From NCBI GenBank assembly GCA_017961295.1, contig JAGCXL010000023.1, forward strand, positions 1 through 64,000: DNA of 64,000 nt, given 5' to 3'. This DNA comes from Elusimicrobiaceae bacterium (GTDB taxonomy: Bacteria; Elusimicrobiota; Elusimicrobia; Elusimicrobiales; Elusimicrobiaceae). How positions within the stretch are numbered: the first letter of the stretch is position 1; every line of letters starts with the position of its first letter. Below the pieces are notes generated by a model. That model ran no database searches, was not told the origin of the DNA, and was given only the letters and a program-made list of their open reading frames with translations. A program made the translations under genes and the position numbers. Below, piece after piece: positions 26,439 through 29,550 of this stretch.

Positions 26439-27789
26439 TTTAGCCAATTTTCCATGTAAAAAAGCCACCGTTTTAGGTGGCGGCAAAAGCGGACAGGCCG
26501 TAGCCCAGTTATTGGCGGCACACGGGTGCGAAGTGCTCATTAGCGATGAAAATACCGTTTCGTTAGCGGTGCCCTCAGCGGATATTACTTTGGAAACCGG
26601 CGGCCATACAGAACAAGTGTTTTTGGCAGATTTTATTGTGAAAAGCCCGGGAATTTTCCCCGGCAGTGCGGTGTTATTAAAAGCGCGGGAGTTGGCAATC
26701 CCGGTATTTAGTGAACTGGAAGTGGCGCTATCGTTTGTGCCGCCGGGCGTGCAAATTTTGGCCGTAACCGGAACCAACGGAAAAACAACATCGACTACTT
26801 TGCTAGGAAAGATTTTAGAAAAGAAATTTTTGCGTGAAAATTTGGGGCATACCGTAAAGGTATGTGGCAATATCGGCAATCCCATTTCAACCTGTGTGGA
26901 CTCTGTAAAAAACGGAGACGCACTTGTCATAGAAGTTTCCAGTTATCAACTAGAAGACAGCACTTATTTTCACCCGCATATTGCCGGGTTGCTTAACATT
27001 ACGCCGGACCATTTGGATCACCATAGCGGTATGAAAAATTATATTGCCGCTAAAGCATGTATTTTTAAGGATCAAACCAAACAAGATATTGCCGTATTAA
27101 ATGCGGCGGATGGTGTGTGTGCGCAACTGGCGGAACAAATTAAAAGCGAGATTTGGGCATTTTCTGCCCAACCGAAACATTGGATGAAAACCGACGTATT
27201 TTACGACGGAGATGAGTTGATTTTTAGTGAGGGAGCCCATTTGCGCCCGCCCAAGTTGCGCGGAATTCACAATATTGAAAATGCCATGGCCGCCGCTTTA
27301 ATGGCGTTGCGCGCCGGAGCGACCGCGCAAGATGTGCAAGCCGCGTTTGATGATTTTCACGCCATGGAACACCGTATTGAACCAGTGGCGATCGTGCATG
27401 GGGTTAGCTATATTAACGACTCCAAAGCGACCAATTTGGATTCCACCATTACGGCTTTAAAGAGTTTTGAGAAAGAAAAAAATATTTGGCTCATTTTGGG
27501 CGGGCGCGATAAGGGCGCCTCGTATGAAGTATTGCTGCCCTATCTAAAAGACCATTGCAAATGTGTGTTATCCATTGGGGAGTGCATGGATAAAATTGAA
27601 AAAGAACTCCGGGGAGCATTTCCCATTGTACGTTGCACAACGCTTGAAAAAGCGGTTGCCTATGGTGCGCAGCATGCCCAACAAGGTGATGTCGTATTGT
27701 TATCCCCGGCGTGTGCAAGCTTTGACCAGTTTAAAAGTTTTGAGCACCGCGGGGAAGTATTTAAACAATTGGTGAAAAAATTGGTATGA
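26431..27789 (+). CDS. murD: UDP-N-acetylmuramoylalanine-D-glutamate ligase
   Basis: The 452-residue protein adds D-glutamate to UDP-MurNAc-L-Ala. It has an N-terminal Rossmann domain (VLGGGKSGQAVAQLL), the ATP site VTGTNGKTTSTTLL, EVSSYQLE, and the ligase C-terminal domain with NDSKATN and LILGGRDKG. GAGGAG at about 26420-26425 lies within murE. The ATG overlaps murE, and its stop overlaps the following outer-membrane protein gene by 4 bp (ATGA), tying cell-wall and envelope genes into one transcript. Confidence 0.97.
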   Translation: MFNLANFPCKKATVLGGGKSGQAVAQLLAAHGCEVLISDENTVSLAVPSADITLETGGHTEQVFLADFIVKSPGIFPGSAVLLKARELAIPVFSELEVALSFVPPGVQILAVTGTNGKTTSTTLLGKILEKKFLRENLGHTVKVCGNIGNPISTCVDSVKNGDALVIEVSSYQLEDSTYFHPHIAGLLNITPDHLDHHSGMKNYIAAKACIFKDQTKQDIAVLNAADGVCAQLAEQIKSEIWAFSAQPKHWMKTDVFYDGDELIFSEGAHLRPPKLRGIHNIENAMAAALMALRAGATAQDVQAAFDDFHAMEHRIEPVAIVHGVSYINDSKATNLDSTITALKSFEKEKNIWLILGGRDKGASYEVLLPYLKDHCKCVLSIGECMDKIEKELRGAFPIVRCTTLEKAVAYGAQHAQQGDVVLLSPACASFDQFKSFEHRGEVFKQLVKKLV

Positions 27790-28463
27790 AAAAAATCATT
27801 GTACTGTTAAGCGTGTTATTTTTGACGGGTTTGGCAAACGCGCAAAATGCCTATACCGAACATGAAATTGACGTAGGAATCCGGCAGGGAGATACGTTGT
27901 TTTCTCTGTTTGTGGGGGGAGCCACCCCCATGGCCGCGAACGCTTTTAATGTGGACATAAACGACACCCACGAAGAAATGAAATGGGGCAAAATGGGTGT
28001 GCAGTACGGGGTGTCCGTCTTTTACTTTGTGCACGATTTTGTGGGGGTGGGTTTGGAGGCAAGCGGCGTAAATAGTACTTATGCGCAAAAGTGGATTGGA
28101 AACACACAATACAAAACGGCTACCGATTTGTGGAACGGGATGATATTGGGACGAATTAATATTAATCCGTATCAGCCGGTGCGGGTGTATGTGCCGGCTG
28201 GGGTAGGCCTTACTTGGGCCCGCAACCGCTGGGAAACAAACGACGGGCAAGAATCCCCGATAGAAAAAAGTTTGTCCTATGGATATTTTGTAGGGCTTGG
28301 AATAGAAACTAACTTTAGAGGGAAGGACAAATCAATTGGTTTGGAAGTGCGCTATAGCGGATTTGGGGCTGATTTGGATAACCGGTTAGCCGGGGCAATA
28401 ATTCGTGAAAAAAACAAATTAGAGTACTTATCAATTCTGCTAAAACTAAATTACCGGTTTTAA
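27786..28463 (+). CDS. Outer-membrane beta-barrel protein (paralogue 1)
   Basis: The 225-residue protein has a cleavable signal peptide (MKKIIVLLSVLFLTGLANA) and a mature chain of about eight amphipathic strands. It ends in LKLNYRF, the C-terminal phenylalanine signature recognised by the BAM machinery. It is clearly a paralogue of the protein at 28777-29550: shared blocks are GI[RS]QGD, the KWG..G..YG.S..YFV segment, GRIN[IV]NP, and [LF]GLE[VM]RY[SN]GF. It is translated from ATGA overlapping murD, and a terminator follows. The size suits an OmpX/OmpW-like 8-stranded barrel; function unknown. Confidence 0.8.
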   Translation: MKKIIVLLSVLFLTGLANAQNAYTEHEIDVGIRQGDTLFSLFVGGATPMAANAFNVDINDTHEEMKWGKMGVQYGVSVFYFVHDFVGVGLEASGVNSTYAQKWIGNTQYKTATDLWNGMILGRININPYQPVRVYVPAGVGLTWARNRWETNDGQESPIEKSLSYGYFVGLGIETNFRGKDKSIGLEVRYSGFGADLDNRLAGAIIREKNKLEYLSILLKLNYRF

Positions 28464-28490
28464 TTTTTAATGCAAATTTTAAGAAGATTT

Positions 28491-28518
28491 CCCGTATTGT
28501 AAAATACGGGATTTTTTA
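28491..28518 (+). terminator. Terminator of murE-murD-barrel operon
   Basis: CCCGTAT (28491-28497) pairs with ATACGGG (28504-28510) around TGTAAA, then ATTTTTTATT. Its loop also forms part of the next promoter's -35 box. Confidence 0.85.
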
Positions 28519-28525
28519 TTATACT
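28497..28525 (+). promoter_or_regulatory. Promoter of the structured leader and second barrel gene
   Basis: TTGTAA (28497-28502), a spacer of exactly 17 bp, and TATACT (28520-28525) predict a start near 28532. The -35 box lies in the loop of the preceding terminator. A second -10-like TACAAT at 28531-28536 would start transcription at about 28543, the first base of helix P1. Confidence 0.7.
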
Positions 28526-28531
28526 GTAGGT

Positions 28532-28739
28532 ACAATTTGATTCTGTTTTTGGAAGTGTATGCGGAATACACGGGGTGCTTGGAACAAGCGCTGCCTTCGA
28601 AGCCAAAAACAGCCGATATTAGGCACAAGTAGGCCCGCGGTTCTGCTTGTGCCGAGTGTTTGCCGTTGCCCATGCAACGGCAGGCTGCGGCTGTTATATT
28701 GGATCTTTCGAAGGCATCCAGTATAGCAGCCGATTTTTT
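28532..28739 (+). ncRNA. Structured attenuator leader RNA (candidate riboswitch), unrecognised class
   Basis: The 313-bp gap 28464-28776 has no gene but folds extensively. P1: 28543-28552 pairs perfectly with 28603-28612 (10 bp). Inside it are P2 (GTGTAT 28555-28560 with ATACAC 28566-28571) and P3 (28575-28581 with 28585-28591). Then come P4 (28622-28632 with 28643-28653, 11 bp with one U-G) and P5 (28661-28669 with 28674-28682, 9 bp). Last is a 17-bp terminator helix with two G-U pairs (28688-28704 with 28716-28732) and a T6 tract. CGGCTGTT (28688-28695) in the terminator's 5' strand is also complementary to AACAGCCG (28608-28615), whose first five bases belong to P1. The terminator loop 28707-28715 is complementary to the P1 junction 28593-28601. 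I recognise no known riboswitch consensus. It could also act as a separate small RNA. Confidence 0.7.
28688..28739 (+). terminator. Intrinsic terminator inside the leader (attenuator)
   Basis: A 17-bp stem (28688-28704 with 28716-28732, two G-U pairs) carries an 11-nt loop and is followed by ATTTTTTG. It ends 38 bp before the second barrel gene. No good promoter lies between them, so expression requires read-through. Confidence 0.85.
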
Positions 28740-28776: not shown

Positions 28777-29550
28777 ATGAAAAAAATCGCAGTAAATATG
28801 ATGCTGTTGCTTGCTGTGGCGGGCCTAACGTCGGCACAGCCATATTCTTTTACAGCACAATCGGCCGATCGAAGAGGGAAAACCATTGACGATTCTTACA
28901 AAACGGTTGGCAGACGTCCCGTTAATGCAGGGATTAGTCAAGGGGATAGCATGGTGTCTTTGATGCTGGGGGTAGGTGTACCGTTGGGGGACAGCGGTAT
29001 AGATATAGAAGAAAGCAGCAAGCCTAAATGGGGCGGAGCCGGATTTAATTATGGGCTCTCTTATTTGTATTTTGTAAATGAGTCTTTGGGACTTGGTTTT
29101 GAGGTAAGCGGCATGAATACTGCAAATGCTACCAAAGATTATTCCGGCTTAGGGTATTCCGAGCATTATACGAACAGTATGGATTTATTCAATGCCATGT
29201 TAACGGGGCGCATTAATGTAAATCCGCAAGAAGAACATTGCCGCGTTTATTTCCCGTTTGGAGCCGGATTCACTTCAGCGAAAGGTACTTTTAAAGTAAA
29301 GGCAGAAGATTCTTATTATGGGTCTTTTGATGAAAGATATTCGGCAACAACGACCTCTTTAGGATACTTTTTGGGGCTTGGATTTGAATCTACGGTGGGG
29401 GATATAGATAATCGCATTTCGGTCGGATTGGAAATGCGCTACAATGGGTTTGCGTTTGATACCGATAAATTGATATCCAATCACCCGTTAAATGGGAAAA
29501 AACACTACAGTTATTTATCGTTTTTGCTAAAGGTAGGATACCGCTTTTAG
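28777..29550 (+). CDS. Outer-membrane beta-barrel protein (paralogue 2), under leader control
   Basis: The 257-residue protein has a signal peptide (MKKIAVNMMLLLAVAGLTSA) and a barrel ending in LKVGYRF. It is a paralogue of the preceding barrel but longer, with an extra N-terminal segment of about 30 residues and an acidic, Ser/Tyr-rich loop near the middle. AAGGAG (28764-28769) is 7 bp before the ATG. Longer in-frame starts back to 28660 would run through the leader's hairpins and hide the signal peptide, so they are rejected. The attenuator leader suggests that this paralogue, unlike the first, is conditionally expressed. Confidence 0.82.
   Translation: MKKIAVNMMLLLAVAGLTSAQPYSFTAQSADRRGKTIDDSYKTVGRRPVNAGISQGDSMVSLMLGVGVPLGDSGIDIEESSKPKWGGAGFNYGLSYLYFVNESLGLGFEVSGMNTANATKDYSGLGYSEHYTNSMDLFNAMLTGRINVNPQEEHCRVYFPFGAGFTSAKGTFKVKAEDSYYGSFDERYSATTTSLGYFLGLGFESTVGDIDNRISVGLEMRYNGFAFDTDKLISNHPLNGKKHYSYLSFLLKVGYRF

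What the first reader, a model, noticed from the sequence alone, without database searches (positions are those of the whole stretch)
28532..28739. Candidate new riboswitch-like attenuator RNA between two outer-membrane protein paralogues
Seen in sequence: a consensus promoter (TTGTAA-N17-TATACT) starts a gene-free 200-nt leader with five helices before an intrinsic terminator 38 bp ahead of a barrel gene. P1 (28543-28552 with 28603-28612) is a perfect 10-bp helix around two hairpins. CGGCTGTT at 28688-28695 can pair either with the 3' side of the terminator or with AACAGCCG at 28608-28615, which overlaps P1. P1 folding thus favours termination and P1 opening favours antitermination. Nine loop bases of the terminator (28707-28715) are also complementary to the P1 junction (28593-28601), so a kissing contact could stabilise the folded state. 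Mutually exclusive helices plus a long-range loop contact are hallmarks of riboswitches. I see none of the known consensus cores (TPP, cobalamin, SAM, lysine, FMN, c-di-GMP, T-box). The ligand is unknown; an envelope-related signal is a guess from the regulated gene.
Basis: partly seen in the sequence, partly recalled or inferred. Interest (0 to 1): 0.82.

Follow-up and report, generated by a model that had tools for sequence, protein, structure and literature searches.

The report
Multi-copy attenuator RNA before pilin genes
The spot holds one member of an undescribed family of about 210-nucleotide folded RNAs, present in up to about 60 copies per genome in gut Elusimicrobiota, which sits in front of pilin, outer-membrane, sugar-transferase and DNA-modification genes and looks like an on/off switch with a private lock in each copy and a self-pairing loop.

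Summary
In detail: every helix named is in the sequence, the leader folds far better than shuffles (z -7.3), and Rfam has no match. It is not unique to the strain. It belongs to a family I could not find described: 5 copies in this genome, 3 to 63 in each of eight relatives counted fully, limited to Elusimicrobiaceae and probably Endomicrobiaceae. About 60% of roughly 260 copies precede type IV prepilin genes; the rest precede barrels, glycosyltransferases, DNA methylases and other accessory genes, a median of 41 nt before the start codon. Covariation is massive. The terminator-loop contact is a private 9-11 bp helix, different at almost every locus yet almost always complementary. The P4 loop is self-complementary in all 41 distinct loops of 6 nt or more (18 expected), usually with the 2-6-1 layout of retroviral dimer loops. 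Best reading: a cis-acting transcription attenuator that swaps terminator for antiterminator by strand exchange, probably with RNA-RNA dimerisation. The trigger is unknown; a metabolite riboswitch is not shown.

The parts
28490..28511 (+). intrinsic terminator of the upstream barrel gene; overlaps the -35 of the leader promoter
28497..28525 (+). promoter TTGTAA-N17-TATACT; start of transcription inferred near 28532
   Evidence: 9/12; -10 box recurs at a similar place in relatives
28532..28739 (+). leader RNA, family member (covariance-model match 28530-28739, 180 bits)
28532..28540 (+). conserved 5' element ACAATTTGA, unpaired in the model
28543..28552 (+). P1 5' strand
   Evidence: 97.7% of cells paired
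28555..28571 (+). P2 hairpin
28574..28592 (+). P3 hairpin
28592..28602 (+). K5: 5' strand of the private long-range helix K
28603..28612 (+). P1 3' strand
28608..28615 (+). antiterminator strand 1 (AACAGCCG), pairs with 28688-28695
28622..28653 (+). P4 hairpin
28635..28640 (+). CCGCGG, self-complementary P4 loop sequence of this copy; the MFE fold pairs its CC with its GG around a 3-nt loop, so it lies outside the 6-nt-loop statistics
28658..28685 (+). P5 hairpin
28688..28704 (+). terminator 5' strand; its first 8 nt form antiterminator strand 2
28706..28716 (+). K3: 3' strand of helix K, in the terminator loop
28716..28732 (+). terminator 3' strand
28734..28739 (+). terminator T tract
   Evidence: 135 of 146 copies have at least 6 T in 9 nt
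28777..29550 (+). regulated gene: 257-aa predicted outer-membrane barrel, paralogue of the upstream gene (no Pfam match itself at E<=0.01)
27786..28463 (+). upstream barrel gene (PF13505), follows murD directly and has no such leader

Best explanation
A cis-acting transcription attenuator of a new, many-copy family. The leader is transcribed from its own promoter. In state A, P1 and the terminator hairpin form and RNA polymerase stops at the T tract. In state B the 3' strand of P1 leaves its partner and pairs with the 5' strand of the terminator, continued by helix K, and transcription runs into the gene. The change is a strand exchange in which K is a private clamp that fits both states and keeps each leader folding on itself. 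The self-complementary P4 loop most likely pairs two leader RNAs (same or sister copy), so the level of leader RNA, or a factor acting on the dimer, may bias the choice. Shown by computation: the helices, their covariation, the two exclusive folds, gene association, copy number, loop self-complementarity. Inferred: that read-through varies, that dimers form, and what triggers the switch.
For: Structure: 90.7% of cells paired against 79.9% in shuffles, 320 double changes against 107. K covariation score 0.840 against 0.208; own-copy helices of 9-11 bp against a usual 4-5 bp for crossed copies, repeated on a second set of 89 copies and in the second family. G-U exceeds A-C in all seven helices (K itself too), so the + strand RNA is the functional molecule. 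Antiterminator pairing of at least 7 bp in 113 of 130 rows, including subfamilies in which the paired sequence is quite different (AATAATCG type). Before the terminator 3' strand is made, state B is within 1 kcal/mol of the best fold in 85% of copies; at full length state A wins by a median of 4.6 kcal/mol, as expected of a switch decided during transcription. Strong T tracts. The gene starts a median of 41 nt after the terminator and only 18 of 198 such gaps hold a -10-like hexamer, so genes must be read through the terminator. P4 loop: 41 of 41 distinct loops hold a palindrome of 4 nt or more (shuffled 17.6 +/- 3.0), 32 of 41 one of 6 nt or more (3.4 +/- 1.6), with no enrichment in P2, P3 or P5 loops.
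Against: No expression data; read-through has not been observed. Within the main subfamily the antiterminator helix hardly varies, so its covariation rests on the divergent subfamilies. State B energies use forced pairs and ignore pseudoknot energy in state A. 46 of 246 copies have P4 loops shorter than 6 nt, some not self-complementary, and the short subfamily lacks P4, so dimerisation cannot be needed everywhere. Many prepilin genes have no such leader: one genome has 106 prepilin matches and 3 leaders.
Confidence: 0.7

Rival explanations
1. A metabolite riboswitch: the P1-P3 domain (and perhaps P4/P5) binds a small molecule that locks state A or B.
For: Leader position, exclusive folds and a multi-gene regulon are typical; type IV pilin genes elsewhere are under c-di-GMP riboswitches (PMC6200980, PMC6366702). 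Some unpaired positions are conserved: ACAATTTGA, GAA after P1, the segment between P4 and P5.
Against: No Rfam aptamer matches. Conserved unpaired sequence is thin; P4 is missing in one subfamily; the regulated genes share no metabolic pathway.
Confidence: 0.2
2. A stand-alone, always-terminated small RNA (about 210 nt) that acts in trans, perhaps as a dimer, and merely lies before genes.
For: Own promoter and strong terminator; self-complementary loop.
Against: Fixed orientation and short distance to the gene in copies with quite different genes, and little room for another promoter. Antiterminator complementarity would then have no use.
Confidence: 0.13
3. A DNA-level element, such as a recombination or mobile-cassette site, that travels with accessory genes.
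For: Many copies, accessory gene cargo, and private sequence that can change wholesale between near-identical loci.
Against: G-U against A-C asymmetry shows selection on the RNA of one strand; promoter, terminator and gene spacing are conserved; no match in phage, plasmid or viral collections.
Confidence: 0.05
4. Protein-dependent antitermination: a host RNA-binding protein reads the conserved parts and opens the terminator; self-complementary loops matter little.
For: Conserved unpaired segments and P1 sequence.
Against: No candidate protein identified; strong loop self-complementarity would be unexplained.
Confidence: 0.12

Closest known systems
c-di-GMP riboswitches upstream of type IV pilin genes (Clostridioides difficile pilA1; PMC6200980, PMC6366702)
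   Same: Leader RNA in front of a type IV pilin gene
   Different: No Rfam match to any c-di-GMP or cGAMP class; dozens of copies per genome; private pseudoknot; no ligand known
Terminator-loop pseudoknot riboswitch candidates (example in PMC11109978)
   Same: Terminator loop pairs with an upstream part and could govern termination
   Different: There a weak single candidate near one-carbon genes; here 9-11 bp, different at almost every locus, in a family with full covariation
Retroviral dimerisation initiation site (HIV-1 DIS; PMC4066764, PMC5874298)
   Same: Self-complementary apical loop; the commonest layout here is a 9-nt loop with 2 nt, a 6-nt palindrome, 1 nt, which is the HIV-1 DIS layout as I remember it
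   Different: A works-like comparison only: bacterial leader, many different palindromes, no dimer shown
GOLLD, ROOL and OLE RNAs (PMC12286853)
   Same: Bacterial structured RNAs that form RNA-only homo-oligomers; ROOL also comes from the rumen
   Different: No Rfam match; much smaller; ends in an intrinsic terminator before a gene
T-box leaders
   Same: Terminator/antiterminator choice in a long leader, many copies per genome
   Different: No T-box match in Rfam; regulated genes are not amino-acid related

Membership tests
Any Rfam 15 RNA family | covariance-model score at or above gathering | tested here: not met
Transcription attenuator (general kind) | intrinsic terminator before the gene in the leader | tested here: met
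Transcription attenuator (general kind) | alternative pairing that excludes the terminator, conserved across relatives | tested here: met
   weak variation inside the main subfamily
Transcription attenuator (general kind) | read-through changes with a signal | not testable with these tools
   needs transcription assays or RNA-seq
Riboswitch | direct binding of a metabolite or ion | not testable with these tools
   no binding data
Riboswitch | densely conserved unpaired aptamer core | tested here: inconclusive
   only short conserved unpaired stretches
c-di-GMP-I, c-di-GMP-II and cGAMP riboswitches | match to the Rfam models | tested here: not met
Self-complementary kissing-dimer loop (DIS-like) | apical loop with a palindrome that stays palindromic as sequence changes | tested here: met
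Self-complementary kissing-dimer loop (DIS-like) | dimer formation | not testable with these tools
   needs native gels or analytical ultracentrifugation

The most novel reading that the evidence does not exclude
A bacterial gene-control RNA that works as a dimer with a two-level address: a shared self-complementary loop lets leaders of one class meet, and a private 10-bp code makes each leader act only on itself, giving locus-by-locus control of dozens of surface and DNA-modification genes of the kind that other bacteria switch by phase variation.
Probability: 0.2. Interest if true: 0.95.

Novelty: new variant of a known kind. Interest (0 to 1): 0.8.

Why it matters
It would be one of the most numerous leader-RNA families known for its genome size (up to about 60 copies in about 1.4-1.5 Mb), would link type IV pilins, barrels, glycosyltransferases and DNA methylases in one regulon of a little-studied gut phylum, and would be a candidate for natural RNA dimerisation in gene control. 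The private helix offers a natural library of more than 100 different compensated sequences in one fold. What signal it reads is directly testable in a test tube.

Tried and rejected
Known RNA class: no Rfam match even at a weak threshold. Pattern hits in Treponema and Paenibacillus: not matched by the covariance model, taken as chance. Phages, plasmids, viral contigs: none. K as a guide to a third site nearby: not clearly above chance (31 against 20.4 +/- 4.6 for 8-mers, 5 against 3.5 +/- 2.2 for 9-mers). Selection against cross-pairing of K inside one genome: no difference from between genomes. K as plain neutral drift: does not fit well, since K is either kept at 77-89% identity elsewhere or rewritten at 98%. 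Sequence relation of the window barrel to the leader-linked barrels of relatives: not detectable by BLASTP. Literature: no description found, but most subscription papers are not held.

Full report
What is at the site. The window belongs to a 897-kb, 67%-complete draft genome. Relatives that carry the same element are named Elusimicrobiaceae or Elusimicrobiales, from rumen and gut. It folds with -97.7 kcal/mol, z -7.3. The second barrel starts 37 nt after the T tract. No Rfam family matches.

It is a family. A BLASTN search of 61 genomes of the genus found matches in 44. I aligned 43 copies and built a covariance model. In 295 genomes spread over the phylum it matched 88, all in two families and 9 of 89 genera. 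One is Elusimicrobiaceae by the names; the other is probably Endomicrobiaceae, because Candidatus Ruminimicrobiellum, in that family, carries it. Full counts: 5 in this genome; 63, 57, 23, 20, 15, 12, 3 and 3 in eight relatives; up to 26 in the second family. A single-contig genome of 1,643,562 bases, which by size I take to be Elusimicrobium minutum (from memory, not verified), has one copy, before a zinc-ribbon gene that also carries the leader in several other genomes.

Covariation. For P1-P5 and the terminator, 90.7% of cells pair against 79.9% in shuffles and at most 48% in slid versions; double-change cells are 320 against 107. G-U exceeds A-C in all helices, so the functional molecule is the RNA of the + strand.

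In 146 distinct copies the own pairing is 9-11 bp in nearly all, while K5 of one copy with K3 of another usually gives 4-5. The same holds for 89 copies from two genomes plus this one, and for most copies of the second family. Positions with all four Watson-Crick pair types are common. K is 97% Watson-Crick (that figure is flattered because the longest helix is chosen, so the crossed control matters more). K changes oddly. At one locus with 99.3% identity over 1,178 upstream bases and about 98% in the rest of the leader, K has been rewritten on both sides (L026 against L029), while other pairs keep K unchanged at 77-89% identity elsewhere. I found no third site that K could target. K therefore looks like a locus-specific code; whether selection or imported sequence rewrites it is open.

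The switch. The 3' strand of P1 can pair either with the 5' strand of P1 or with the 5' strand of the terminator. This holds in 113 of 130 rows with 7 or more pairs. In divergent subfamilies the shared sequence has changed from ACAGCCG to AATAATCG or related forms in all strands together, which is the best evidence that the exchange is constrained; inside the main subfamily the strands hardly vary. The consensus fold of the alignment chose antiterminator plus K over the terminator. When the transcript ends just after K3, antiterminator plus K is within 1 kcal/mol of the best fold in 85% of copies; once the terminator is complete it wins by a median of 4.6 kcal/mol. K fits both states.

The self-complementary loop. 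P4 loops of 6 nt or more exist in 200 of 246 copies, and every one holds a palindrome of at least 4 nt. Of 41 distinct loops all do (17.6 +/- 3.0 in shuffles), and 32 hold 6 nt or more (3.4 +/- 1.6). At least ten different 6-nt palindromes occur (TAATTA, TTATAA, TCATGA, TTCGAA, TTGCAA, CTCGAG, TCTAGA and others). The usual layout is 2 nt, 6-nt palindrome, 1 nt. P2, P3 and P5 loops show no such excess. The window copy has CCGCGG at 28635-28640, in a shorter predicted loop. The five copies of this genome include CCGCGG, TTCGAA, TAATTA and TCATGA. Different sequences with one symmetry argue for pairing between two RNA molecules rather than for a protein site. I infer dimerisation; it is not shown.

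What it controls. Of 265 copies, 157 precede a prepilin motif, 85 another gene, 17 no clear gene, 6 lie at a contig end; the set leans on two rich genomes and includes a few antisense model matches. In this genome three of five copies precede prepilin genes, one the barrel, one an operon. Among the other genes are family 2, 8 and 9 glycosyltransferases, OMP_b-brl barrels, EcoRI-type and other DNA methylases, GmrSD_N, PLD/SNF2 proteins, TPR and zinc-ribbon proteins. Pilins, surface proteins, sugar transferases and DNA methylases are the classes that other bacteria control by phase variation (established knowledge). That is a lead, not a result. Not all prepilins have a leader: one genome has 115 prepilin matches and 57 leaders, another 106 and 3.

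Promoter. A -10 box lies upstream in 81 of 144 copies, in one large group about 17 nt before P1, so the RNA starts near the conserved ACAATTTGA. Many of the other copies have an extra hairpin there instead, often preceded by AGGAG, with possible promoters further up.

Verdict. Riboswitch in the strict sense is unproven. I found no earlier description in the library available, with the caveat that most subscription papers are not in it.

Noticed in passing
leaders such as L021, L026, L032, L014 (upstream of P1): In many copies without an adjacent -10 box, an extra hairpin (often TAAGCC...GGCTTA) sits just before ACAATTTGA, preceded by AGGAG; possible longer 5' form or short reading frame.
   Followed up: partly
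G041, G073, G047, G090: 83 to 115 prepilin-motif matches in genomes of 1.4-1.6 Mb, an extreme expansion; only some carry the leader.
   Followed up: partly
L020, L030, L042, L047, L210 downstream genes: Several leader-linked prepilin genes have extra N-terminal preambles, some with a recurring motif (VILNxIQDL, NTRRG) before FTLIELL, as if repeat elements were inserted in the signal peptide region.
   Followed up: no
L226 1268-1460 and 1501-1700 (minus strand): Two tandem leaders before an EcoRI-type methylase gene; both have the same K5, but only the upstream one keeps full K pairing.
   Followed up: partly
L026 and L029: Syntenic loci, 99.3% identical upstream, whose leaders differ mainly in helix K, rewritten on both sides.
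   Followed up: partly
L212 (G000:C6:6706-6949): Most divergent copy of this genome; no gene close by, a second hairpin follows, then an operon whose second frame looks to me like a DegT-type aminotransferase (not tested).
   Followed up: no
window 28490-28511: The terminator of the upstream barrel gene contains the -35 hexamer of the leader promoter, so the two transcripts abut.
   Followed up: no
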